From assembly GCF_000348945.1 (NCBI RefSeq), contig NZ_AOCK01000014.1, positions 1 to 64,000 of the forward strand: a stretch of 64,000 bases of DNA. Reading direction: 5' to 3'. This stretch comes from Paeniglutamicibacter gangotriensis Lz1y (GTDB taxonomy: Bacteria > Actinomycetota > Actinomycetes > Actinomycetales > Micrococcaceae). Numbering within the stretch: the first letter of the stretch is position 1; each line of letters begins with the position of its first letter. This document shows, one piece after another, positions 19,129 to 38,765 of this stretch. The position numbers were made by a program, and so were the translations under genes. Below the pieces are notes generated by a model, which worked only from the letters and a program-made list of their open reading frames with translations, was not told the DNA's origin and searched no databases.

Positions 19129-20883
19129 ATGGAACAGGGCACCAAGGCCATGCACGTAGCCATCAACACCTCCCGCCGGACCAATAAGGCCGGCGTCGAA
19201 GTCGAATACCGGTCCGCCCTGGTGCGCCGGACCTACCGCCAGGGCGGCAAGGTCAAGCACGAGACCCTGTGCAACATTTCCTTCCTCCCCGACCACGCGA
19301 TCATGGACCTGAAGGCCTCCCTGAACGGCAAGATCATGGTGGACGCCGAGACCCGGATGCAGATCCTGCGCTCCCTGCCCCACGGACACCTCGACGCGAT
19401 CTACGCCATGGCCCGCGGGCTGCGCTTCGAATCCCTGCTGGGCCACGCCTGCCGGAACCGCGACCTGGTCATGGCCCTGCTCGCCGCCCTCATCTGTAAG
19501 TCGACCTCCAAGCTTGCCACCCTGAACTGGTTCGCCGACACCACTTTGGGCCCCGACCTGGGCCCGGTCTCCTCCGATGACCTCTACGCCGCGATGGACT
19601 GGCTGCTGGAACAGCAGCCCCGCATCGAAAAGCAGCTCGCCCGCACCCACCTGGGCCCCGAACACAACCCCGAGGGCCTGGCCCTGTTCGACCTGTCCTC
19701 CTCCTGGGTCACCGGCACCCACAACCCCCTGGCCAAATTCGGGTACTCGAGGGACCGAAAGCGCGGCTGCGAGCAGATCGAATACGGCATGCTCGCCACC
19801 CGCGCCGGACTGCCCATCGCCGTGCGCGTCTTCCCCGGCAACACCGCCGACCCGGCCGCCTTCATCCAGATCGCCTCCGAGGTCCAGGGCCTCTCCGGTG
19901 TCCAGGAACTGGTCATGGTCGGGGACCGCGGGATGATCACCAATGCCCGCATCGAGGACCTCAAAAAAGACACCGACTTCCGGTGGGTCACCGCGCTGCG
20001 CAACACCGACATCCAGATGCTCGCCGAGGACAACGGGCCCCTGCAGATGACCCTGTTCGACGAACAGAACCTCGCCGAAATCAGCCACCCGAAATACCCG
20101 CACGAACGGCTGATCGCCTGCCGCAACCCCGCCCTGGCCACCAAGCGCTCCCGCAAGCGCACCAGCCTGCTCGAAGCCACGGAAGAGAAGCTCGAAACCA
20201 TCAAGAAAGCGGTGGAGGCAGGCAGGCTCAAGGACGCCGGCAAGATCGGGGTGAAGGTCGGGAAAATCGTCGGTACCTACAACATGGCCAAGCACTTCAA
20301 CCTGGTCATCACCGACGAAGAATTCACATACTCCCGCAACGCCGAATCCATCAAACGGGAGGCGGACCTGGACGGGATCTATGTCATCCGCACCAACCTC
20401 ACCACCGATGCCATGGACGCCCCCGAGGCCGTGCGGACCTACAAGGCCCTGGCCAACGTGGAAAAGATCTTCAAGACGCTCAAGACCCGGCATTTGGGCA
20501 TCCGCCCCATCCGCCACTACACCGAGGACCGGACCCGCGCCCACGTGTTCCTCTGCATGCTCGCCGCCCACCTGACCTGGCACCTACGCACCGCGCTCGC
20601 GCCGTTGACCTTCACCGACAAGAACCGGCCCGTGCCCGAAGAGCCGGTCGCCAAGGTGGTCCGTTCGGCCGCCGCGGCACGCAAGGCCAGCACCCGGAAG
20701 CTTGACGACGGGACCGTCGCCACCAGCTACCAGGACCTGCTCACCCACCTGGGAACACGGACACGGAACACCACCAGAGTCCCGGGCACCGGGAAGACCT
20801 TCGAACTGCTCTCCCTGCCCACGCCCCGCCAACAGCGCGCCATGGACCTCATCGACCACCACGCCCGAAACCACAGAAAGTAG
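19129..20883 (+). CDS. IS1634-family transposase
   Basis: The 584-residue protein is a typical large IS4-superfamily transposase of the IS1634 group. Catalytic residues are visible in ALFDLSSSWVTG, VMVGDRGMI and NVEKIFKTLK, separated by the long beta-rich insertion expected of this family. The frame is uninterrupted and begins at ATG 19129; a second ATG at 19150 is possible since no clear ribosome site decides between them. A second, decayed element of this type left its 3' end at 23110-23225. Confidence 0.88.
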   Translation: MEQGTKAMHVAINTSRRTNKAGVEVEYRSALVRRTYRQGGKVKHETLCNISFLPDHAIMDLKASLNGKIMVDAETRMQILRSLPHGHLDAIYAMARGLRFESLLGHACRNRDLVMALLAALICKSTSKLATLNWFADTTLGPDLGPVSSDDLYAAMDWLLEQQPRIEKQLARTHLGPEHNPEGLALFDLSSSWVTGTHNPLAKFGYSRDRKRGCEQIEYGMLATRAGLPIAVRVFPGNTADPAAFIQIASEVQGLSGVQELVMVGDRGMITNARIEDLKKDTDFRWVTALRNTDIQMLAEDNGPLQMTLFDEQNLAEISHPKYPHERLIACRNPALATKRSRKRTSLLEATEEKLETIKKAVEAGRLKDAGKIGVKVGKIVGTYNMAKHFNLVITDEEFTYSRNAESIKREADLDGIYVIRTNLTTDAMDAPEAVRTYKALANVEKIFKTLKTRHLGIRPIRHYTEDRTRAHVFLCMLAAHLTWHLRTALAPLTFTDKNRPVPEEPVAKVVRSAAAARKASTRKLDDGTVATSYQDLLTHLGTRTRNTTRVPGTGKTFELLSLPTPRQQRAMDLIDHHARNHRK

Positions 20884-26492: not shown

Positions 26493-27107
26493 TCATGCTG
26501 GCATGTCGGGGCCTTCGGTCGGTCCGGGTCCCACTGGGGCTTCGCCGCGTCTCAGGTATTGGTACACCGTTTCCCTGCTCAGTCCGTATTCCCTGGCAAG
26601 CTGGGCCTTGGGAATCCCTGCAGCCGCCCGGGCAGTAAGCTCAAGAACCTTCTCCGGTCCAAGAACACGTTTGCGCCCCTTATAGACCCCGCGGGTCTTC
26701 GCCAACGCGATGCCTTCACGCTGGCGTTCCTTAATAAGGGACCGTTCGAACTCGGCGAAGGCCCCCATGACGGAGAGCATCAGATTCGCCATCGGGGAAT
26801 CCTCCCCCGTAAACACCAGACCTTCCTTCACGAACTCGACCCGGGCACCCTTGCCGGTCAGGGTTTGCACCACCGAGCGAAGGTCATCGAGGTTGCGGGC
26901 CAGTCGATCCATGGAATGAACCATCACGGTATCCCCCGTGCGTGCGAATCTGATCAGCTCATCGAGCTTCGGCCTCCGGATGTCCTTGCCCGAGGCGCGG
27001 TCGGTGAACACTTGGTCCATGGCTTGACCTTCGAGCTGCCGTTGTTCGTTTTGGTCCAAGGTACTGACCCGAACGTACCCAAGTCGCTGTCCAACCACGA
27101 AACCCAC
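26493..27107 (-). CDS. Serine recombinase (resolvase/invertase)
   Basis: The 204-residue small serine recombinase has the catalytic serine in YVRVSTLDQN (S15), the arginine-rich active-site block MDRLARNLDDL and the C-terminal helix-turn-helix GIPKAQLAREYGLSRETVYQYL. Length and layout are those of Tn3-type resolvases. It reads toward the LysR gene; the region behind it (27108-27360) holds inverted repeats that could be its crossover site. It probably marks the left edge of the lower-GC island that runs to about 36866. Confidence 0.88.
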   Translation of the reverse strand: MGFVVGQRLGYVRVSTLDQNEQRQLEGQAMDQVFTDRASGKDIRRPKLDELIRFARTGDTVMVHSMDRLARNLDDLRSVVQTLTGKGARVEFVKEGLVFTGEDSPMANLMLSVMGAFAEFERSLIKERQREGIALAKTRGVYKGRKRVLGPEKVLELTARAAAGIPKAQLAREYGLSRETVYQYLRRGEAPVGPGPTEGPDMPA

Positions 27108-27360: not shown

Positions 27361-28476
27361 GTGGCAAACCCATTCAAGCCGACGGCCGGCGCAGAGCCGC
27401 CGCATCTCATCGGGCGTGAGGACGCACTGGACCTCTTCGTCGAAGGACTCGAAGATGGCGCCGGCGCACCCGGCCTCCTGAGTATCATCTCCGGGCCTCG
27501 CGGTATCGGCAAGACCGCCCTGCTTCACCGCGCGGAGAGCATAGCGCTCGAACATGGGTGGGCGCCAATCTCCGACACCGCCACCCCGGGTCTGCTTGAA
27601 CGCCTCAAGCACGGTGTCGAGGTGCATCTTCGGGAACTGGGCAAAAGAGAGCCAAGGTGGCACATCACTGCCGTGCAGGCAGCATCTTTCGCAGTTACGC
27701 GGGAGATAACCCCAGCTTCGCAAATCGATCTGCGGGAACGCATGACGGAACTGACCACGATTCTTCGTGAGCATGGCACCGGTCTGCTGATCACTGTCGA
27801 TGAGATCCACTCAGTGGATCGCTCCGAGCTCGTTCAGTTGTCGGCGACGGTCCAGCACCTAATCCGAGACGGGCTGCCCATCGCATTCATTGGGGCCGGG
27901 ATACCCCAAGCGATCTCCAACCTGCTGAACGACAAAATTTCCACTTTCCTCCGCCGGGCAGACCCAATCGTGCTCGACAGCGTCGCCTTAGACGCCGTGA
28001 GGGATTCCCTGCGTCAAACCTTTGCGGACAGCAACGTGGCCATCAGCGAGGATCAGCTGACAATGGCGGCGCAAGCCACCGGAGGCTATCCGTTCCTGGT
28101 CCAGCTCGTCGGATACCACGTATGGCGTCTTTCGAAGGTTGACGGGGTCACCGACCAAACACTGAGCAGAGGCATAGAGGCGGCACGCAAACGACTTGGA
28201 TCGACGGTATTGGACACCGCGCTGGCCGATCTCTCAGACGTTGACCGAACTTTCCTGGTCAAGATGGCCATCGACGACGGGCCCTCGTACATGTCCCGCA
28301 TTGCCGAAAGGATGGGCGAGAGCATTAAGTACGTCGGCGTCTACCGACGAAGGCTCTTGGACACCGGCATCATCAGGACGGCTGGCCATGGCAAGGTAGA
28401 GTTCACACTCCCCTATCTGGCCGAGCACCTCCGCAACCATGCCGTCCAGCTCCACAATCCGGGGCAAGGCTCATGA
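27361..28476 (+). CDS. AAA-type ATPase with C-terminal winged helix
   Basis: The 371-residue protein has Walker A GPRGIGKTA (about 45-53), Walker B LLITVDEIH (about 142-150), a sensor region (IAFIGAGIP) and a C-terminal winged-helix-like part. The overall layout resembles Orc1/Cdc6-like or archaeal-type ATPases found in many actinobacterial accessory regions. GTG 27361 follows AAAAAGG. It overlaps the acetyltransferase gene by four bases (ATGA). No partner protein of known defence systems is obvious; a DNA-linked or NTPase switch role is possible, but function is not known. Confidence 0.7.
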   Translation: MANPFKPTAGAEPPHLIGREDALDLFVEGLEDGAGAPGLLSIISGPRGIGKTALLHRAESIALEHGWAPISDTATPGLLERLKHGVEVHLRELGKREPRWHITAVQAASFAVTREITPASQIDLRERMTELTTILREHGTGLLITVDEIHSVDRSELVQLSATVQHLIRDGLPIAFIGAGIPQAISNLLNDKISTFLRRADPIVLDSVALDAVRDSLRQTFADSNVAISEDQLTMAAQATGGYPFLVQLVGYHVWRLSKVDGVTDQTLSRGIEAARKRLGSTVLDTALADLSDVDRTFLVKMAIDDGPSYMSRIAERMGESIKYVGVYRRRLLDTGIIRTAGHGKVEFTLPYLAEHLRNHAVQLHNPGQGS

Positions 28477-29063
28477 GCGCGTCCAGAGAATTTACCGGGA
28501 GAAACCATGTGTCCATTCGCTCCGCTGGGCCCGCTGACTTTCCTGGAGTGCTCACGCTTCTCACCCAGATGCCGCGCTGGAGAAACGCTACACATGGCGC
28601 ATTTCGCGACGAGAACATCGTGGCGATCGACGACCAGGGACAGATCGTTGGATGGCTTATGGGCAATCATGACTCCGAAGCGTGGCGGAACGTCCACGGA
28701 TATGACATGGTCGAGGGATGGCGATGCTCGTATATAACGTGGGTACTCGTCGACAAGGGCTGCCGCTCAGCCGGGGTCGGAGCCATGCTGATGGAAACCT
28801 TCGCCCATGATTCGGCCTCTGCCGGGAGGGATACCATCGTCGCCTCACCCCAGTCGGGCGAGCACGAGCTGGCGCTCCTGCGGTTCTATTCCCGAATGGG
28901 TTACCGCCGCGCGGAATCCGGGCAGGTTCACCGGGGGCCATGGGGATCACCGGTCGATGTTCCCCTACCGGAACCTGAAGTGAGGAGCGCGCCCTCTGCG
29001 CCGGATCCACAGGCTGAGGCGGCCATCAGCGAATACCTGCGGAAGCTTGGCTACACGCAATAA
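28473..29063 (+). CDS. GNAT-family N-acetyltransferase
   Basis: The 196-residue protein has the GNAT core: beta strands around IVAIDDQGQIVGWLMGNHD, the acetyl-CoA loop region WVLVDKGCRSAGVGAMLMETFA and the ALLRFYSRMGYRRAE segment that closes the fold. Its ATG overlaps the ATPase stop codon, so translation is coupled and the two proteins are made together. The substrate is unknown; acetyltransferases paired with NTPases can act on proteins, tRNA or small toxins, but nothing here selects among these. Confidence 0.75.
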   Translation: MSASREFTGRNHVSIRSAGPADFPGVLTLLTQMPRWRNATHGAFRDENIVAIDDQGQIVGWLMGNHDSEAWRNVHGYDMVEGWRCSYITWVLVDKGCRSAGVGAMLMETFAHDSASAGRDTIVASPQSGEHELALLRFYSRMGYRRAESGQVHRGPWGSPVDVPLPEPEVRSAPSAPDPQAEAAISEYLRKLGYTQ

Positions 29064-29283
29064 CCCAGACAGCGGTCGGAGACGAACTTAATCGACGAGG
29101 TCAGGGGCACGCGCATATCGGTACATTGCGTGTCTCCGACATCATGGCCTCGACGAGGGCGAAGCTTTCTATGCCGCCGGTACTAAGAACGGCCACGTCG
29201 AAGCCACCAAATACCGGGAATTCGCGGAAGTCTTCGATTTCGCTGCGCTCGCTGCTGCGCAGCCACCCAGCATCCGGTGGGGA

Positions 29284-30423
29284 GTGTGGCATGGGCACTA
29301 TGTTTACAGTATGGAACCCAACGAGCCTTTCAGTATCGGCATTGCCGTGCCGCTGACCCCCGTCGACGAGAATAACGCCGCAGGACTAGAAAGGGAGCTT
29401 TCCGAGCACTATTTCAGCATCAGCCCCGCGGAGTATTTTGAACGCCGCCTCTGGGAGATCATCAAGACTGCGGACACCGCCCACCAGGAAGTGCGCGACT
29501 GGCACACCGACGATCCGACGAACCTGTTCAACCAATACGCCACACTGATGGGCAAGGAAATTGACCTTGACAACCCTCCGGGTGACACTCTCGATTCAAC
29601 GACCATGGCTTCAATCGAGTCCTACACCCTGATGCAGCACGTCATTGAGACCGTGCTCAGGTTGTATGTGGCAGCGAAAAGCCGAAAGCTAGGGACCAGC
29701 CCGATGCTGGTGTTGCTGAACATGAAAGATCCCCGGCAACTCCGCGATCCCATCAAGGAACTCCTTCGAGAAGAAGCCGTTCTGAAAGTAAAGGAGACTC
29801 TCCTTCCACCGGAGCTCAAACTGGGCGATGATCCCGAAGCATTAGTTGAATTTGAACAACATATTCTGTTCGTTACGCAGTGGCTATCCCACTTCGCACG
29901 TTTCTATTCCGATGACCATTTCGGCGGTGCCCAGGGCAATAACCAACTCAAGCACGGGGCGGCCGTCGCCCCCAGGGCAGACCTCGAATACTCGTTCCTT
30001 ACCAATATTGAGCCTCATCAATCACTGACCAATGAGGAGTGGAACGCCGGAACCCCGATCATCAATGGCCCATCGATCTCATACATGGAGCTCATCAAGC
30101 AAGGAGGGTGCGAGCCAGGCATCCGGTTACGGACCGACAATTCAGATCCAGCAACCAACCTAGCCATCGCTGCTGTCGGCATCAGCATCATCAAATCGCT
30201 GTGGACCATTGCCGGAGCCGTGGCAGGTCCAGTGACAGGCCCCCCGCGTCAGATTGACTATCCTCTTGATTGGTCGCCTCTCCCAGATGAGGTGTTTGAC
30301 AAATCGAAGCGGCCACCACGCTCCATCGTGCGCATGCTGCGGGCCCCGGCCCGCAAGGCAGGCGCTCAGAACGGCGCCAAAACAAAAGGTGGCCCGAATT
30401 CGCGAAGGAGCCGAACTCCATAA
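29284..30423 (+). CDS. Protein of unknown function, start uncertain
   Basis: From GTG 29284 the frame encodes 379 residues without a family I recognise. The middle is helical and rich in acidic residues (about 30-210), one short hydrophobic stretch occurs near residue 300 (LAIAAVGISIIKSLWTIAGAV), and the tail is basic. The reading frame is open back to a TAA at 29089-29091, and this upstream part reads like real protein (RYIACLRHHGLDEGEAF) but offers no ATG, GTG or TTG. Either an ATT at 29125 is used, or a short sequence change removed the true start. It follows the acetyltransferase gene and is likely part of the same operon. Confidence 0.55.
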   Translation: MWHGHYVYSMEPNEPFSIGIAVPLTPVDENNAAGLERELSEHYFSISPAEYFERRLWEIIKTADTAHQEVRDWHTDDPTNLFNQYATLMGKEIDLDNPPGDTLDSTTMASIESYTLMQHVIETVLRLYVAAKSRKLGTSPMLVLLNMKDPRQLRDPIKELLREEAVLKVKETLLPPELKLGDDPEALVEFEQHILFVTQWLSHFARFYSDDHFGGAQGNNQLKHGAAVAPRADLEYSFLTNIEPHQSLTNEEWNAGTPIINGPSISYMELIKQGGCEPGIRLRTDNSDPATNLAIAAVGISIIKSLWTIAGAVAGPVTGPPRQIDYPLDWSPLPDEVFDKSKRPPRSIVRMLRAPARKAGAQNGAKTKGGPNSRRSRTP

Positions 30424-30897: not shown

Positions 30898-33627
30898 TTG
30901 GTAAAGCTCAATCTCAAGACCATCGAAGAGCGCGTCGCTCCCGTCGGAGGACAAGAAACCTACACCCGGGATTTCATTTTCGACCTGCTCACTGCCTATG
31001 GTCGGGCTCAGGGCAATATCACCCGGTTGCGCAATGGCTCATTGAACGTTGCTGAAGATCCGTCAACCGAGGTAGCCCAAAAGAACGTGGTTTACTTCAA
31101 GCAGACCACCGAGGACCCTCTGGCTGTCATTGAGGAACTTCGTACTTCGCCTGCAGTAGTTCGCTACAACACCAGATTCGTCATCGTTACCGACTTTGTT
31201 GAACTGGTTGCGATCGATATCAAGACGAATGAGAATCTGATGATTCCCATTCGCGACATTGATCAGCATTTCGTGTTCTTCCTCCCGTGGGCCGGGATGG
31301 AAAAGGCACAGTATGTTGCCGAAGCGCACGCCGATGTCAAAGCCGCGGAGCGCATGGGCAAACTCTTCGACGAGCTCCTCCAAGCGAACCCCGACGTATT
31401 TGATACTCCTACTGGCCGTCACGCACTGAACACGTTCTTTACCCGGCTCCTCTTCTGCTTTTTTGCCGAGGACACCGGTATTTTCACAGAGAACCAGTTC
31501 ACCAACGCGGTCGGGACGCATACGCAGCCTGATGGCTCCGACGTTGCTGGATTCCTCAACGATCTGTTCACGGCGTTGGATACGCAGTTCGCCTCGGCAA
31601 AGCCGGCCCACCTGGCTTCGTTCCCATATGTCAACGGCCGGCTATTTCACACGTCCGATGAGCAGACCGTTCCTCAGTTCACGAAGAAGGCGCGCGGCCT
31701 TTTGATCGAGGCTGGCTCTTTGATTTGGAGGGAGATCAACCCGGATATTTTTGGGTCGATGTTTCAAGCGATCGTCACACCAGGAAAACGCTCGGATCTT
31801 GGCCAGCATTACACCTCTGTACCGAACATTCTGAAGACTATTGAACCGCTCTTCCTTAATGAGCTTAAAGAAAAGTTCGATAACGCTTACAACTCAGTTC
31901 CACAGCTTGAGAAGCTCCTTGACCGGATTAGTGAGATCAAGATTTTTGACCCTGCATGTGGCTCGGGCAACTTCTTGGTGATCGCGTATAAGGAACTGCG
32001 CCGCCTCGAACACGCGATCCTGGAACGTCTTGGAAATCTAAGCGTTAAGCATCAGAGAATATCCTTAGATTCACGTATCAATGTTGAGAACTTCTACGGC
32101 ATCGAGATCGATGACTTCGCCGTAGAAGTCGCAATCCTTTCGTTATGGATTGCTAAGCATCAGATGAATGCAGAGTTCTTCGAGAAGTTCAATCTTAGGA
32201 TCGAACTGATCCCGCTGAAGGAAGCCGGCCAAATTGCCCAGGGCAATGCTACTCGCGTTGATTGGAACTCGGTCTGCCCGAACGAAGGCGGCGAGATCTA
32301 CCTGATCGGCAATCCCCCATATAAGGGCGGAAAATCGCAGAGTAAGGAAATGAAAGCCGACTATCCATTCGTCTTCGGCAAACGGCCCTATTCAAAGGAC
32401 CTTGATTACATCGCGCTCTGGTTCGTAAAAGGCGCCAGTTATATTGAGGGAACGCGAGCGGAGCTGTCGTTTGTCTCCACGAACTCTGTAGCCCAGGGCG
32501 AGCACGTCGGTCTGATGTTTCCAATGGTCTTAACCATGGGCATCGAAATAGGATATGCCTACACCTCGTTCAAATGGGAGAACAACGCTAAGCGCAATGC
32601 TGGCGTCTCTGTAGTCGTGATCAACCTTCGTATGGAACGCACAGGTCAAAAGTACATCTTCACTGACGGTCTTCAGATTGAGGCAACCAATATTAATGGT
32701 TACCTCACCGATGCTCCTTCGGTATTCGTGTACCGACGAACGAGCGTGCTTAGTCCTTCTCTTCCTCGAATGGTTTTGGGATCAATGCCTAAAGATGGTG
32801 GACACTTGATTTTTGGGGCCCGAGAACGGGCCGAAATCGTGGCATCTGATCATCGATCAGAACAGCTTATCAAGCGCTATATGGGTTCAGCTGAATTTAT
32901 TAATGATATTGAACGTTACTGTTTTTGGATTGCAGATAGTGAGTTGGAATTCGCCTACCAAATCCCTCTCATCAAGCGACGACTTGATGCGGTCGCGCAG
33001 TGGAGAAGCGAAAGTGTTGCCTCCACCACCGCCGACTTTGCTGTGCACCCAAACCGATTCAAACAGATGGCCTACCGTCCAACGAATTCCATCGTTGTCC
33101 CTAGGGTCTCATCTGAGCGACGAAAATATGTTCCAATGGGATTCCTTGGTCCAGAAACTGTTGTTTCAGACCTTGCGAATACTGTCTACGACGCGGAGCC
33201 GTGGATTTTTTCGCTGCTTACTTCGAGGATGCACAATGTGTGGCTGAGAGCTGTTAGCGGTCAGCTTGAGACTCGCATTCGTTACGGTGCATACATTGTT
33301 TACAACAATTTCCCGGTCCCACCGCTCTCAGCCGCGGTGAAAGAGAAACTCACGGTCGCGGCATTGCGCGTGCTGGATGTACGCGAGTATCACTGCGAAC
33401 ATACTCTCGCCGAGCTTTACGACCCTGAAAGCATGCCACAAGACCTCCGCCAAGCTCATTCTGAGGTAGACGCTCTGGTGGACTCGATCTATTCCAAGAA
33501 GCCATACGAGACTGATGAACAACGCCTGTCTGATTTGTTTGCAATGTACGAACGCATGACCGCTGAGGAAGCTGCGAAAGCTTCGGTCAAGAAGACCCGC
33601 ACTTCGAGGAAGACTGTAGCCAAATGA
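30898..33627 (+). CDS. MmeI-like DNA adenine methyltransferase/specificity protein
   Basis: The 909-residue protein has the layout of type IIL (MmeI-like) enzymes: an N-terminal domain, a helical spacer, an N6-adenine methyltransferase with the SAM motif FDPACGSGNFL (about 350-360) and catalytic NPPY (about 472-475), then a target-recognition domain and C-terminal tail. In the N-terminal domain, where MmeI proteins carry a PD-ExK nuclease site, the sequence reads VVYFKQ, so the ExK motif is missing. TTG 30898 is chosen because AGAAGGAG lies six bases before it. Its stop overlaps the helicase start (ATGA). It likely modifies host DNA and sets specificity for the linked helicase and nuclease. 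Confidence 0.82.
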   Translation: MVKLNLKTIEERVAPVGGQETYTRDFIFDLLTAYGRAQGNITRLRNGSLNVAEDPSTEVAQKNVVYFKQTTEDPLAVIEELRTSPAVVRYNTRFVIVTDFVELVAIDIKTNENLMIPIRDIDQHFVFFLPWAGMEKAQYVAEAHADVKAAERMGKLFDELLQANPDVFDTPTGRHALNTFFTRLLFCFFAEDTGIFTENQFTNAVGTHTQPDGSDVAGFLNDLFTALDTQFASAKPAHLASFPYVNGRLFHTSDEQTVPQFTKKARGLLIEAGSLIWREINPDIFGSMFQAIVTPGKRSDLGQHYTSVPNILKTIEPLFLNELKEKFDNAYNSVPQLEKLLDRISEIKIFDPACGSGNFLVIAYKELRRLEHAILERLGNLSVKHQRISLDSRINVENFYGIEIDDFAVEVAILSLWIAKHQMNAEFFEKFNLRIELIPLKEAGQIAQGNATRVDWNSVCPNEGGEIYLIGNPPYKGGKSQSKEMKADYPFVFGKRPYSKDLDYIALWFVKGASYIEGTRAELSFVSTNSVAQGEHVGLMFPMVLTMGIEIGYAYTSFKWENNAKRNAGVSVVVINLRMERTGQKYIFTDGLQIEATNINGYLTDAPSVFVYRRTSVLSPSLPRMVLGSMPKDGGHLIFGARERAEIVASDHRSEQLIKRYMGSAEFINDIERYCFWIADSELEFAYQIPLIKRRLDAVAQWRSESVASTTADFAVHPNRFKQMAYRPTNSIVVPRVSSERRKYVPMGFLGPETVVSDLANTVYDAEPWIFSLLTSRMHNVWLRAVSGQLETRIRYGAYIVYNNFPVPPLSAAVKEKLTVAALRVLDVREYHCEHTLAELYDPESMPQDLRQAHSEVDALVDSIYSKKPYETDEQRLSDLFAMYERMTAEEAAKASVKKTRTSRKTVAK

Positions 33628-35606
33628 ACGCAATCAAAAAACCAGTGAACATCGTCAACGTCAGCTATGCCCAGACGAAGGCCTCGGTGAATACAGATGC
33701 GTTGGGTATGCGCGAAATGCAGCAGCGTGTCTTCGCCCAGCGCGAGGCCCAACACTTGTTGGTGAAGGCTCCCCCGGCCTCGGGTAAGTCCCGTGCGCTC
33801 ATGTTTGTTGCGCTCGACAAGCTCTACAACCAGAATCGTAAAAAAGTCATCGTCGCCGTGCCGGAACGCTCGATTGGCGCATCGTTTGCGCCAACGAATC
33901 TCAGTAAGTTTGGGTTCTGGGCGGACTGGGAAATCAAGGATGGACACAACCTCTGTGATGCTGGTTCTTCAGCTGGTAAGGTCAATGCGTTCATCAAGTT
34001 CCTCGAAGGCCCTGATGCAGTACTCGTGTGCACGCATGCGACGCTGCGGTTCGCCTTCGAGAGGCTTGCTCCCGAGGCTTTCAACGGCACCGTCCTGGCT
34101 ATCGATGAGTTCCACCATGTCTCCGCCGATATTGAGAACTCGCGTCTGGGCTCACTGCTGCGCGATGTGATGAACGGTTCGGACGTGCATATCGTCGCAA
34201 TGACCGGTTCCTACTTCCGTGGTGACTCCGTGCCGGTCTTGTCCCCAGAAGACGAAGCCAAGTTCACTCCGGTCACTTTCAACTATTACGACCAGCTCAA
34301 CGGTTACGCACACCTGCATTCACTGGGCATTGGCCACCATTTCTACCAGGGCCGGTACACCGAGGCCATCGAGGAAGTCCTTGACCTCGATAAGAAGACG
34401 ATTGTGCACATCCCGAGCGTAAATTCGGGTGAGTCCACCAAGGACAAGATTGAAGAAGTCGGCTTCATTATTGATGCCATCGGGCATGTCGAAGAGACCG
34501 ATGCTGACACGGGAATCATTAGCGTGCGGCGGAGAGACACCGGCCAGATCGTGCTTGTGGCCGACCTGGTCGACGATACCGACCAGAAGAAACGCGGCGA
34601 CACGATGCACTACCTCGCACACACGGCCTCGAAGAACCGCGACGCGGTCGACATCATCATCGCCCTCGGCATGGCCAAGGAAGGCTTCGACTGGCCCTAC
34701 GCCGAGCACGCCCTCACCGTAGGCTATCGCGCTTCACTGACCGAGGTTATCCAGATCATCGGCCGAGTCACCCGCGACAGCGAGGGAAAGACCCATGCCC
34801 AGTTCACTAACCTGATTGCTCAGCCTGATGCGGCAACCGATGAAGTGAAGCTTTCCGTCAACAACATCCTTAAGGCGATCACTGCATCGTTGCTGATGGA
34901 ACAGGTCCTCGCACCGAACTTCACGTTCAAAACCAAACGCGGCAACGACGATGCACCAAAGCCTGGCGAACTGAAAATCAAGGGATTCAAAGAACCATCA
35001 ACACCTCGAGTGAAGCAGATCATCAAGACAGATTTGAATGATCTGAAGGCAACGATTCTGCAAGACGATACGTTCGCCAAGGCTGCAGCAGGTAGCCTCG
35101 ATCCGGAAACGACCAACAAGGTACTCATCCCGAAGATCATCCGGGAGAAATACCCGGATTTGTCGGATGCCCAAGTAGAAGAGGTTCGTCAGCAGGTTGT
35201 GGTCGACTCCGTCATCAAAAACGGTGAGGTTCGCGAAGTCGGAGACAAACGCTTCATCAAGATGGCTGAAAAGTTCGTCAACATAGACGACATCGACATC
35301 AATCTCATCGACTCGGTCAACCCGTTCCAGCGGGCCTTCGAAGTGATGAGCAAATCAGTCACGCCCAACGTGCTCCGAATCATTTCGGACACGATCACCG
35401 CGACCCGGGTAGAAATATCGGAGCAAGAAGCACTGCTGCTGTGGCCCAAGATTCAGGCGTGGGTCAAGGTTAACGGCCGTAAGCCGGATGTGCGCAGCGA
35501 GGATCCAAACGAAAAAAGGTACGCTGAAACGCTGTTGTTCCTGCAACGGAAGAAACAGCAACTTTTGGCACACCAGCGGGCAACACAGATGGTCGACGAG
35601 GCATGA
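33624..35606 (+). CDS. Superfamily 2 DEAD/DEAH-type helicase
   Basis: The 660-residue protein shows Walker A KAPPASGKS (about 48-56), a DEFH box in LAIDEFHHVS (161-164), the SAT-like MTGSYF, and motif VI QIIGRVTR (377-384). It is followed by about 270 residues of unassigned C-terminal sequence. It resembles the motor subunits of type I and III restriction systems and other DNA-translocating defence helicases, but has no nuclease motif of its own that I can see. Both ends overlap neighbours by ATGA, so methyltransferase, helicase and nuclease are translated as a unit. Confidence 0.83.
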   Translation: MNAIKKPVNIVNVSYAQTKASVNTDALGMREMQQRVFAQREAQHLLVKAPPASGKSRALMFVALDKLYNQNRKKVIVAVPERSIGASFAPTNLSKFGFWADWEIKDGHNLCDAGSSAGKVNAFIKFLEGPDAVLVCTHATLRFAFERLAPEAFNGTVLAIDEFHHVSADIENSRLGSLLRDVMNGSDVHIVAMTGSYFRGDSVPVLSPEDEAKFTPVTFNYYDQLNGYAHLHSLGIGHHFYQGRYTEAIEEVLDLDKKTIVHIPSVNSGESTKDKIEEVGFIIDAIGHVEETDADTGIISVRRRDTGQIVLVADLVDDTDQKKRGDTMHYLAHTASKNRDAVDIIIALGMAKEGFDWPYAEHALTVGYRASLTEVIQIIGRVTRDSEGKTHAQFTNLIAQPDAATDEVKLSVNNILKAITASLLMEQVLAPNFTFKTKRGNDDAPKPGELKIKGFKEPSTPRVKQIIKTDLNDLKATILQDDTFAKAAAGSLDPETTNKVLIPKIIREKYPDLSDAQVEEVRQQVVVDSVIKNGEVREVGDKRFIKMAEKFVNIDDIDINLIDSVNPFQRAFEVMSKSVTPNVLRIISDTITATRVEISEQEALLLWPKIQAWVKVNGRKPDVRSEDPNEKRYAETLLFLQRKKQQLLAHQRATQMVDEA

Positions 35607-36817
35607 GCGAACTAGGCAACGAGAACCCAGTAACAGGTACAGCTGAGCCCGTCTTAGACATTCAATCGTTGATTGACTCAGATCTCGATGGACTTCTTGA
35701 TACACCTGAGAAGCCTAGGAAGATCACTGCCCAGGGCCGTTTAGAGCGCGCTTTTCTGGAGATCGTTGAGTTCAACAAGGCTCAGGGGCGTCTGCCAAGC
35801 TCGAGCACACGAGACATCGCTGAACGAAAGCTCGGTGCACGGCTTGAAGGAATTCTGGCCAGCGAAGAAAAAATCGCTGTGCTAAAGCCCTTGGACGATC
35901 TCGGGTTGCTCGAATTCCCCGAAGCGCCGGAGTCATTGGACGATCTGCTCAATGGTGGCGGACTCGACTTGCTGGACGATGATCTTGGGCTTCTCGACGT
36001 TTCTGCTTTGCCCCAGCGGCGGACTGCCGACACTCCGGACTCAGTTGCTAAACGCAAGAAAGCCGTAGGGTTCGAAGCCTTCGAACCACTGTTCAAGGCA
36101 AAGCATGCCGAACTAGCTCAGGGAACTTTCAAGCTGATCCAGTTCCCGGGCGCGCACACCATTGACTCCGGAAACTTCTTCGTGTTGAACGGTGTCATGC
36201 TTTTCGTGGCCGAAGTAGGCGAAACTACCGTGCTCGAAGTCGGTGGCAAAGCACGTCCGAAGCAACGTTTGAGGGTCATCTTCGAAAACGGCACTGAATC
36301 ATCCATGTATAGGCAGTCTCTTTCGATCCGGCTCCATGAAGGCGATGGGCAAGCTATTGTTCGGACCGGACACGACTCTTCCGAGGTGGGTGATGCTGAT
36401 GAAGAGTCAGGGCACGTCTATGTGCTTCGCTCGCTGAGCGACGATCCACAAGTGTCATCGATTCAGAATTTGTACAAAATCGGGTTCAGTACGACCACGG
36501 TTGAGAAGCGAATCGTTAACGCCGCAGGCAGTCCGACTTATTTGATGGCACCGGTGGAAATCGTCGCTGACTACAGGGCATATAACTTGCGTGCTTCGGC
36601 GTTGGAACACTTACTGCATCGGGTGTTCTCTTCGGTTCGTTTGGACGTTACCCAGGTAGATCGTGGGGGCAAGAATTACGATCCTTCTGAATGGTTTGTG
36701 GTGCCGCTGAACGTGATCAACCAGGCGATCAGCATGATCATGTCAGGTGAAATCGTCGATTACGTTTACGCCTCACAACAAGAGAAGCTCGTTCCTCGCG
36801 AGGGCCAGACTAACTGA
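35603..36817 (+). CDS. GIY-YIG (T5orf172-type) nuclease
   Basis: The 404-residue protein has an acidic, low-complexity N-terminal half (many L/D repeats around 96-133) and a C-terminal GIY-YIG domain of the T5orf172/MUG113 type: VYVLRS (272-277), LYKIGFS (290-296), the conserved arginine R303 in EKRI and glutamate E335 in ALEHLLHRVF. All residues expected for catalysis are present. It is the third gene of the methyltransferase-helicase operon and is the likely DNA-cutting part, since the methyltransferase lacks its own nuclease motif. Confidence 0.8.
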   Translation: MSELGNENPVTGTAEPVLDIQSLIDSDLDGLLDTPEKPRKITAQGRLERAFLEIVEFNKAQGRLPSSSTRDIAERKLGARLEGILASEEKIAVLKPLDDLGLLEFPEAPESLDDLLNGGGLDLLDDDLGLLDVSALPQRRTADTPDSVAKRKKAVGFEAFEPLFKAKHAELAQGTFKLIQFPGAHTIDSGNFFVLNGVMLFVAEVGETTVLEVGGKARPKQRLRVIFENGTESSMYRQSLSIRLHEGDGQAIVRTGHDSSEVGDADEESGHVYVLRSLSDDPQVSSIQNLYKIGFSTTTVEKRIVNAAGSPTYLMAPVEIVADYRAYNLRASALEHLLHRVFSSVRLDVTQVDRGGKNYDPSEWFVVPLNVINQAISMIMSGEIVDYVYASQQEKLVPREGQTN

Positions 36818-36866: not shown

Positions 36867-37711
36867 CGTCAAAATGAGATCAACCGCCGATAACAGCACA
36901 TCCGACATGAATCCGCTCTCCTACTGGCTATCCGGGTCAGGTTCCTCCGACCCCAAACATCGACCCCATCAGGCGCTGCACGTATTCCGTTTGGGCTTTG
37001 AGGTTCCAGTGAAGTTCACCGGGTGGTTGCAAAGCGATCCTTTCCTGGCGCTTTGTGTAGGCCCGCCTCACACGTAGCAGCGCACTGTCCGGTCTCAATA
37101 TTGTTGACAACGCTGACCTGGGGTTTTGCCAACTTCAATGAGACGGAACTTGCCCGTTTCGTCTCACTGAAGTTGGCAATTCCGTATCCTTCGTGTGGGG
37201 CAGTCAGCTGGACTGCACTTGGCAAAGGCGCACGGATACCGCCGATTCGACTGGACCGATCTCAAAATTGCCCAGCATGTGCACGGAATCATTCTGGTTC
37301 AGCAACATTGACCTCGAAGCCTCCGCGTTGCCAACTTGAATGAGACAAACCGTGTAATCCGTATCTTGCCAAGTCCAATGAGATTATTGCCAACAATACT
37401 GAGACAGGACACATACCGTTCTCGGATGGCGATTGAACTGACGGATCTCCTTTGACTCCAGCGGCGGGTTTTGACCATTGAGGGCAGATCGTCCGGTGTG
37501 ACGCACCGTCCCGCCTCGGGCTCCGGGTGGAACAATCGCCCTCCCAAGTCAACTGAATATTGGCCCCTGTGGGCTCCACTTGTGGTGCGGGTGAGCTCCG
37601 CCGTCCGATAGGGCGATTGGTGTGCTTGAGCACCACCGCTGGCGTGTTTGGGCACCAACTGCAAGGCTCCTTCCACCATGTGATGGCCACATGGTGGAAG
37701 GAGTACCGGCA
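36867..37711. other. Intergenic with IS21-type terminal repeats
   Basis: No gene is seen. The stretch is dominated by the repeated 19-base motif described at 37092-37405 and leads into a broken istA gene. An additional related motif, AAAATGAGAT, occurs at about 36871. Confidence 0.5.
37092..37405. repeat. Six copies of a 19-base IS21-type end repeat
   Basis: The pattern TTGCCAA-N6-TGAGAC or close variants occurs at 37126-37144, 37328-37346, 37366-37384 and 37387-37405 on the plus strand and at 37092-37110 and 37161-37179 on the minus strand. Repeated sites of this kind form the ends of IS21-family elements, where the IstA transposase binds. Copies in both directions indicate ends of at least two elements. 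Confidence 0.6.
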
Positions 37712-37974
37712 ATGGTACGGAAGATCAAGGCGAAGTTGGTATTGCAGCTGCGTAACCAGAGCCTGTCGCGACGGGCGATCGAGTCTGCCCATAAGATATC
37801 CCGGCACAGCATTCAGGCGGTCCTCGATGCGGCGGAGCTGGCAGGACTTGGTTGGGATGACGTCGCCGAGATGACGTCGCCGAGATGTCGGAGGCCGAGG
37901 TATATACGGCGTTGTTTCCCGGCCGCGGGGTGAGGGAGAGCGTATTCGTGATGGCGCTCAGGGAAATTCCCTAG
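37712..37974 (+). pseudogene. istA: istA N-terminal fragment (IS21 family), frameshifted
   Basis: From ATG 37712, with GGAAGGAG just upstream, the frame reads the typical IstA N-terminus (MVRKIKAKLVLQLRNQSLSR, then ISRHSIQAVLDAAELAGLGWDD). A 14-base tandem duplication (37856-37869 repeated at 37870-37883) shifts the frame; beyond it the correct frame continues as EMSEAEVY, LFPGRGVRESVF and then ends at TAG 37972. The catalytic integrase core is missing altogether, so the gene is both frameshifted and truncated. Confidence 0.75.
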
Positions 37975-38007
37975 TTCTGCTCACCGGTTTCACCCAGCCC
38001 GCGTGAG

Positions 38008-38460
38008 CTAAGTTAGCAGGTTTGCCGGGGTGCCGGTAGTCGCCTTCCGGAGTTGCTCTGCCGCGTCGTGGTGGTTACGCAGCCGGTAGGAGTCCCCGTC
38101 AAGGTTCAGCACCACGGAACGGTGCAGCAGCCGGTCGAGCATGGCCGCGGCGACGGTGGTGTCGCCCAGGATCTCTCCCCACAAATCCCACCGGCCTGTT
38201 TGTCGTGATCACGATGCTGGTTTTCAGGTAGCGCTGGTTGATGACCTGGAACAGGGCCGAGGCGGCCTCGCCCGGCAGTGCCAGGTAGCCCAGTTCGTCG
38301 ATGACCAGGAGCGTTGGCCCCGAGTAGTAACGCATGGTGGATGACCAGTGCCCTTCGATGGCGCCCTTGTGGCAGCGGGCCGCCAGCTCGGCCGCGGAGG
38401 TGAAATAGACGCGGTAGCCGGCTGCGACCGCCGCCCGACCCAGGCCGGCTCCTCACGGTT
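38008..38460 (-). pseudogene. istB: istB C-terminal fragment (IS21 family)
   Basis: On the minus strand MRYYSGPTLLVIDELGYLAL, then FQVINQRYLKTSIVITTN (Walker B and sensor parts), match the IstB helper ATPase. The frame shifts near 38170-38180, after which LDRLLHRSVVLNLDGDSYRL and the tail ending PANLLT complete the C-terminus at TAG 38008-38010. The N-terminal half with Walker A is lost or scrambled. It is opposite in direction to the istA fragment, so the two are not halves of one intact element. Confidence 0.72.
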
Positions 38461-38765
38461 CGGTCGGCAACCGGAAACCCATTCTTGGCCTCCGCGGATT
38501 GTGTGCGCTCCCCCGCTTGCTGTTTCTCCTCCCGCTCTTCCCGGGAAAAAACTAGTATGTATAAAGAATATTGCCAAAAGACTTGGGACGCAGGGGAAGT
38601 CTCAGTGAAGCTACGTACAAGTAATTCAAGAAAATAGTGGCCTTTCCCTTCTTTCCATGCCTATGATGTGGGTCACAAGCTTTTTGATCCTCCGCTTTTC
38701 CAGCTCCCGATGTTGAGCTGGAGAGGATGCCCATCCTGCTTTTGAGCAGATAGAAAGGAACCACC
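38461..38765 (+). promoter_or_regulatory. Upstream region of the vanAB-like operon
   Basis: The stretch after the istB remnant holds GTATAAAGAATAT (38559-38571), whose complement ATATTCTTTATAC recurs nearly unchanged at 41030-41042 before the permease gene. This suggests a shared operator. The ribosome site for the oxygenase gene, AAAGGA, is at 38755-38760. No gene is seen. Confidence 0.5.

What the first reader, a model, noticed from the sequence alone, without database searches (positions are those of the whole stretch)
30898..36817. Split restriction-like operon: MmeI-type methyltransferase, helicase and GIY-YIG nuclease
Three genes joined by ATGA overlaps encode a methyltransferase with target-recognition domain, an SF2 helicase and a GIY-YIG nuclease with its catalytic residues. 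The methyltransferase looks like a type IIL enzyme whose own nuclease has been lost, with cutting moved to a separate GIY-YIG protein and DNA translocation to a helicase. This differs from the standard type I, II, III, BREX and DISARM layouts that I know.
Basis: partly seen in the sequence, partly recalled or inferred. Interest (0 to 1): 0.78.

Follow-up and report, generated by a model that had tools for sequence, protein, structure and literature searches.

The report
Split restriction operon, dnmA-yeeB-yeeC type
Three linked bacterial genes make a DNA-marking enzyme that has lost its own scissors, plus a separate DNA motor and a separate cutting enzyme; the same trio is already known from Bacillus and Vibrio and probably protects cells against some viruses.

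Summary
Window 30898-36817 holds three intact genes joined by two ATGA overlaps: an MmeI-family adenine methyltransferase (MTase) without the MmeI nuclease motif, an SF2 helicase, and a GIY-YIG (T5orf172/MUG113) protein. The claim that the layout is undescribed is wrong: it is the dnmA(yeeA)-yeeB-yeeC operon of Bacillus subtilis, described in 2020 and 2023 papers that credit Morgan 2009 with noting the missing nuclease beside yeeB/yeeC. Deleting dnmA or yeeB in Vibrio crassostreae raises sensitivity to some phages; in B. subtilis no restriction was seen. My tests support the split-restriction reading. Among 30 usable MmeI homologues sampled by their recognition domain, 19 of 19 beside a YeeB-type helicase lack the D-x9/10-E-x-K motif; 10 of 11 others keep it, and the exception sits beside a SNF2-PLD protein. 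Helicase and nuclease are under purifying selection; the recognition domain diverges fastest. Two additions I did not meet in print: a ~40-residue module shared by the helicase C-terminus and nuclease N-terminus, and a predicted NNGG(m6A)C site. Likely mechanism: MTase-guided, ATP-driven restriction (inferred). Verdict: new member of a known but mechanistically unresolved kind.

The parts
30898..33627 (+). MmeI-family (DnmA/YeeA-type) N6-adenine MTase with recognition domain, 909 aa
30887..30892 (+). AAGGAG, likely ribosome-binding site of the MTase gene
   Evidence: read
31075..31113 (+). MTase residues 60-72, where MmeI has its D-x9-E-x-K nuclease motif; motif absent here
31945..31974 (+). 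MTase residues 350-359, FDPACGSGNF (SAM-binding motif; role recalled)
32311..32322 (+). MTase residues 472-475, catalytic NPPY
32713..33327 (+). target recognition domain (MmeI_TRD)
33624..35606 (+). SF2 helicase (YeeB-type), 660 aa
33771..33794 (+). helicase residues 50-57, PPASGKSR (Walker A)
34104..34118 (+). helicase residues 161-165, DEFHH (motif II)
34752..34778 (+). helicase residues 377-385, QIIGRVTRD (motif VI region)
35439..35558 (+). helicase residues 606-645, module shared with the nuclease N-terminus
35603..36817 (+). GIY-YIG (T5orf172/MUG113, YeeC-type) protein, 404 aa
35750..35869 (+). nuclease residues 50-89, module shared with the helicase C-terminus
36410..36739 (+). GIY-YIG-type domain, residues 270-379

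Best explanation
A complete, selectively maintained member of the dnmA(yeeA)-yeeB-yeeC family that works as a split restriction-modification system. Inferred: the MTase recognises a short asymmetric site and methylates one adenine on one strand, which marks self DNA. Inferred: on unmethylated DNA the bound MTase, having no nuclease of its own, recruits or licenses the SF2 ATPase, which moves along DNA and delivers the GIY-YIG protein, which cuts. Because only one strand would carry the mark, I expect cutting to need two oppositely oriented unmodified sites, as in Type III and Type ISP enzymes. A ~40-residue module shared by the helicase C-terminus and nuclease N-terminus may hold the complex together. 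Shown here: gene anatomy, absence of the MmeI nuclease motif, retention of motor and GIY-YIG-type residues, the motif/neighbour exclusion across homologues, purifying selection, and fast divergence of the recognition domain.
For: Anatomy and motifs. 19 of 19 homologues beside a YeeB-type helicase lack the nuclease motif and 10 of 11 others keep it; the exception L044 lies beside a SNF2-helicase/PLD protein. dN/dS 0.023-0.072 for the helicase and 0.043-0.099 for the nuclease against four and four relatives, no internal stops. MTase recognition-domain identity 49-58% against N-domain 72-91% in three full-length comparisons. Helicase matched in 230 plasmid records, 116 typed conjugative. V. crassostreae dnmA and yeeB deletions raise sensitivity to some phages, as told in PMC9973331.
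Against: In B. subtilis, dnmA deletion did not change transformation (PMC7261158) and dnmA, yeeB or yeeC deletion did not change infection by three phages; DnmA sites are not depleted in phage genomes (PMC9973331). No activity could be tested here. The GIY-YIG fold was not confirmed by structure search. The Type ISP kinship of the helicase is weak (LlaBIII E 0.006) and did not reappear with the family profile at E 0.01. dS is near saturation, so the ratios are rough, and two of three MTase comparisons gave no ratio.
Confidence: 0.65

Rival explanations
1. A restriction relic: the MTase is active and kept for epigenetic regulation, while the helicase and GIY-YIG protein no longer restrict, as concluded for B. 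subtilis DnmA.
For: B. subtilis results in PMC9973331 and PMC7261158. Decayed copies exist: a nuclease in pieces without helicase or MTase in a genome of the same genus (L081), and an interrupted MTase in L034.
Against: All three window genes are intact; helicase and nuclease show low dN/dS against relatives. The window nuclease keeps the C-terminal stretch (about residues 383-395) that the Bacillaceae-type relatives L028-L030 lack; B. subtilis YeeC itself was not available for alignment.
Confidence: 0.2
2. The helicase and GIY-YIG protein act with the MTase but not by cutting foreign DNA: for example they block phage replication without cleavage, or serve plasmid maintenance.
For: The T5orf172 domain is called largely uncharacterised in PMC9973331. 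DnmA sites are not depleted in phage genomes (same passages). The operon is common on plasmids.
Against: GIY-YIG-type G, Y, R and E positions are invariant across 22 sequences at 33-83% identity to the window protein. The exclusion between built-in nuclease and YeeBC neighbours points to cutting.
Confidence: 0.1

Closest known systems
dnmA(yeeA)-yeeB-yeeC operon (B. subtilis; V. crassostreae homologues)
   Same: Same three families in the same order: MmeI-like MTase without nuclease motif, SF2 helicase, T5orf172/GIY-YIG protein.
   Different: Window recognition residues predict another site (NNGGAC) than DnmA GACGAG; window nuclease is longer at its C-terminus than the Bacillaceae-type relatives.
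Type IIL enzymes (MmeI)
   Same: MTase and recognition domains align over almost all of MmeI (residues 25-904).
   Different: No PD-(D/E)xK-type motif; extra helicase and nuclease genes.
Type ISP enzymes (LlaGI, LlaBIII)
   Same: MTase, recognition domain, SF2 ATPase and nuclease in one system (PMC4872093 passages).
   Different: Three polypeptides, not one; GIY-YIG-type nuclease, not Mrr-type; helicase similarity weak.
MmeI-like MTase with SNF2-PLD protein (L044)
   Same: Also an MmeI-like MTase without the motif, with an ATPase and a nuclease domain encoded next door.
   Different: Different nuclease domain (PLD), fused to the helicase and encoded upstream; a further downstream ORF weakly matches a type II restriction enzyme model.

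Membership tests
dnmA-yeeB-yeeC operon family | MmeI-like MTase lacking the D-E-K nuclease motif | tested here: met
dnmA-yeeB-yeeC operon family | SF2 helicase gene directly downstream (yeeB position) | tested here: met
   55-56% identity to Bacillaceae-type relatives; B. subtilis YeeB itself not aligned
dnmA-yeeB-yeeC operon family | T5orf172/GIY-YIG gene next (yeeC position) | tested here: met
dnmA-yeeB-yeeC operon family | m6A methylation of a non-palindromic site | not testable with these tools
   site only predicted
dnmA-yeeB-yeeC operon family | protection against phage (shown for V. crassostreae, not B. subtilis) | not testable with these tools
   literature only
Type IIL (MmeI) | nuclease and MTase in one chain | tested here: not met
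   nuclease motif absent
Type ISP | single polypeptide | tested here: not met
   three ORFs
Type ISP | Type ISP-like helicase | tested here: inconclusive
   LlaBIII E 0.0059 by single sequence; not found at E 0.01 by profile, where DHX58 was listed
DISARM | DrmA, DrmB, DrmC partners (recalled) | tested here: not met
   no Drm match for P0002-P0006 at E 0.1; P0001 scores 113 bits for DrmMI against 940 for type IIG. Other window genes were not scanned with PADLOC
BREX | PglX over its curated cut-off, with BrxC and PglZ (recalled) | tested here: not met
   PglX models at most 42 bits against cut-offs of 400-900; no BrxC or PglZ match listed for the six proteins scanned (for P0001 only the best 25 of 53 families were shown)

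The most novel reading that the evidence does not exclude
MmeI-type MTases are exchangeable recognition cores: the built-in nuclease is lost when an external ATPase plus nuclease unit is acquired, possibly twice with unrelated nucleases (YeeB with GIY-YIG YeeC; SNF2 helicase-PLD in L044). The YeeBC unit is an ATP-dependent restriction machine of a type not yet named (neither I, II, III nor ISP), held together by a module shared by motor and nuclease that some lineages encode as a free-standing gene.
Probability: 0.45. Interest if true: 0.6.

Novelty: new member of a known kind. Interest (0 to 1): 0.33.

Why it matters
The operon family is widespread (loci in five phyla by record title; 230 plasmid records), yet a standard defence library scores its MTase as a self-cutting type IIG enzyme, and the best-studied example is considered a relic. 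The window copy is intact and under selection, with a predicted site and defined residues to mutate, so it would be a good test of whether dnmA-yeeB-yeeC is a working ATP-dependent restriction system and how one-strand methylation is kept safe during replication.

Tried and rejected
Upstream genes P0004-P0006 (27361-30423) as part of the system: rejected; none of the three is matched at E 1e-5 in any of the 38 loci then held, 30 of which had long flanks.

Reading of L018/L019 as broken nucleases: rejected; the stop is followed directly by ATG, and the N-terminal module is a separate ORF there, in L084 (annotated; both cases scored with the module profile) and, read by eye in translated frames only, in L026/L027.

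Fold search with the nuclease model (mean pLDDT 75): no Foldseek match at E 0.001; the second look covers mainly the SH3-like middle, residues about 157-255, best Z 6.3. The GIY-YIG domain stayed untested, so no fold claim is made for it. The helicase model (pLDDT 67) was not searched. A profile search of the nuclease against PDB sequences gave only two chance-level rows.

Promoter/terminator scan: no promoter-like site and one terminator-like site inside the MTase gene, fewer than in shuffles; uninformative.

Rows dropped before the motif/neighbour count: of 38 fetched loci (7 Actinomycetota, 31 from the phylum of G450) six have no MTase ORF of 850 aa (L058, L060, L069 with helicase and GIY protein; L045, L047, L075 with neither). 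Two motif-bearing loci without helicase (L059, L078) end within 1.1 kb downstream and were left out. L080 was left out because it was chosen through the nuclease. L066 was kept although it lies in the centre genome G450, chosen because of its triplet; without it the row is 18 of 18. The weaker Actinomycetota matches (12 places, E 1e-18 to 3e-11) were not examined.

Module test, results against it: of the window's own proteins, P0002 matches the nuclease-end profile only at E 1.3 and P0003 the helicase-end profile at E 0.095, while the best shuffled sequences reached 0.55 and 0.31. The case rests on the alignment-to-alignment score and on position, not on single hits.

Literature: nine searches. 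Papers were seen as listings or found passages only; none was read whole. Morgan 2009 (PMC2731913) was not held; the V. crassostreae work was asked for by a recalled DOI and was not held, so its result is cited through PMC9973331. I met no mention of the shared module or of the L044 arrangement, but no search aimed at them, so I do not claim they are unpublished.
Full report
Observation. Pfam gives a full set of MmeI domains for the first, DEAD for the second, and MUG113 plus T5orf172 (GIY-YIG group, grouping recalled) for the third. MmeI (5hr4) is the only strong solved relative of the MTase.

Nuclease motif. A profile of 20 family MTases aligns to MmeI over residues 25-904. The MmeI D70, E80 and K82 (numbering read from that alignment; their role recalled) fall on E60, K70 and T72 of the window protein. 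None of the 20 sequences holds D-x9/10-E-x-K.

Conservation of the triplet. A scan of genome contigs with the nuclease gave 30 loci. L038 is cut short. The other 29 (L009-L037) match all three window proteins. Order and strand agree in 28; in L023 the MTase is inverted and two other ORFs lie between it and the helicase. In L010 the MTase is cut by the contig end, and in L034 it is interrupted. Hosts span Actinomycetota, Pseudomonadota, Bacteroidota, Campylobacterota and Bacillota, judged from record titles. These loci were chosen through the nuclease. Among relatives, 6 of 59 genomes (own included, one of them a decayed copy) have a nuclease match, and 2 of 15 genomes of the genus (own included) have the helicase, so it is a patchy, accessory element. 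On plasmids, 230 records match the helicase at E 1e-40 (116 typed conjugative); the closest, Arthrobacter sp. YC-RL1, carries all three genes. Phage records gave two partial matches at E 1e-20.

Nuclease-replacement test. To avoid choosing loci by their neighbours, I searched for the MmeI recognition domain (PF20466): 19 of 396 genomes of the window's phylum match at E 1e-10, and 29 of 398 genomes of the phylum of G450, the Providencia genome of L031, at E 1e-40. The seven strong non-self places of the first and all 31 places of the second were fetched. After the exclusions listed under Tried and rejected, 30 remain. All 19 with a YeeB-type helicase nearby lack the motif; 10 of 11 without one keep it (Fisher p 3.7e-7, not corrected for shared ancestry). 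In 17 of the 19 the GIY-YIG protein is also in view; in L050 and L061 the fetched stretch ends before it could be seen. Three excluded loci without a full-length MTase ORF also have helicase and GIY protein. The exception, L044, is preceded by a 1121-aa ORF with PLDc_2, SNF2-related and Helicase_C matches, and followed by a 659-aa ORF with a weak, partial match to a type II restriction enzyme model, so its nuclease also appears to be supplied externally.

Selection. Against L082 (the Arthrobacter plasmid), L083, L009 and L010, dN/dS is 0.023-0.072 for the helicase and 0.043-0.099 for the nuclease, with no internal stops. dS is high (1.4-4.4), so the ratios are rough; for the MTase only one of three comparisons gave a ratio (0.075), the others being saturated. 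In the MTase, recognition-domain identity is 49-58% while the N-domain is 72-91% in the three full-length comparisons. That is the usual signature of a recognition domain that changes while the machine stays, and it speaks against a relic in this lineage.

Predicted site. With the residue code given in PMC4833311 (passages), the window has R/D at MmeI 751/773 (G at position 3), L/R at 774/810 (bulky 774 with Arg810: G at position 4) and E/R at 806/808 (C at position 6), in an ungapped alignment. The target adenine is position 5. The prediction is 5'-NNGG(m6A)C-3'; positions 1 and 2 are not predicted. This is an inference; I could not check it on DnmA itself, whose sequence was not at hand.

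Shared module. The helicase C-terminus (residues 606-645) and nuclease N-terminus (50-89) resemble each other. With a permissive limit (E 10), a nuclease-end profile finds 20 of 24 helicases, always in the last 15% of the protein, and the reverse profile finds 19 of 22 nucleases, always within the first 110 residues. MTases give one non-significant hit. Many single hits are weak, the window's own among them (see Tried and rejected). The alignment-to-alignment score is 30.7 and the best of 200 column shuffles is 16.5; it is 33.8 without the rows L028, L029, L030 and L037. In L018, L019 and the Proteus plasmid locus L084 the module is a separate small ORF between helicase and nuclease, and by eye also in L026 and L027. 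A role in assembly is my inference.

Comparison with what is known. PMC7261158 and PMC9973331 (passages) describe dnmA-yeeB-yeeC: DnmA methylates GACG(m6A)G, is 38% identical to MmeI, lacks the nuclease motif and lies before yeeB (SF2 helicase) and yeeC (T5orf172/GIY-YIG); the clustering is conserved; a Type I-like RM system had been proposed. In B. subtilis no effect on transformation (dnmA deletion) or on three phages was found. In V. crassostreae, deletion of dnmA or yeeB increased sensitivity to some phages. The window is thus a member of a described family. By mechanism it most resembles a Type ISP enzyme split into subunits (PMC4872093 passages), but it fails the single-polypeptide feature and its nuclease is not Mrr-like. 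One-strand marking with opposed-site cutting is how Type III systems handle replication (PMC12707154 passages), which is the basis of my two-site prediction.

Surroundings. G+C is 0.51-0.59 over 22-38 kb, against 0.60-0.66 over the rest except 56-60 kb. A serine resolvase lies at 26493-27107 and oxygenase and transporter genes follow at 38.8 kb. This fits a horizontally acquired stretch. The three genes just upstream are not part of the conserved unit.

Verdict. Real and well observed, not new in kind; useful because its mode of action is unproven and it offers clear tests.

Noticed in passing
L044:7149-15355 (strand -): MmeI-like MTase without nuclease motif beside a 1121-aa SNF2-helicase/PLD protein: a second way of supplying the nuclease from outside.
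   Followed up: partly
L054:8209-9216, L070:7963-9273, L061:7001-8970, L050:7801-8586, L018:5850-7873: Extra genes between MTase and helicase in several loci: RhuM family (PADLOC PDC-S05), PDDEXK_4 (PDC-S26), a reverse transcriptase, DUF1828 proteins, others not identified. The gap looks like a slot for cargo genes.
   Followed up: partly
L018/L019:9983-10261, L084:7933-8220, L026 and L027 just upstream of the GIY gene: The nuclease N-terminal module is a separate small ORF (L026/L027 by eye).
   Followed up: partly
L081:6553-7571 (G006, same genus): Decayed nuclease in several frames without helicase or MTase in the 13 kb fetched.
   Followed up: partly
window 27361-30423: AAA_16 ATPase gene overlapping a GNAT gene by ATGA, then a 379-aa ORF without Pfam match; not in the homologous loci.
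   Followed up: partly
window 37690-38530: By eye looks like IS21-type istA/istB remnants (recalled); two ORFs tested gave no Pfam match.
   Followed up: partly
window 19129-20883 and 26493-27107: DDE transposase and serine resolvase left of the operon, suggesting a mobile stretch.
   Followed up: no
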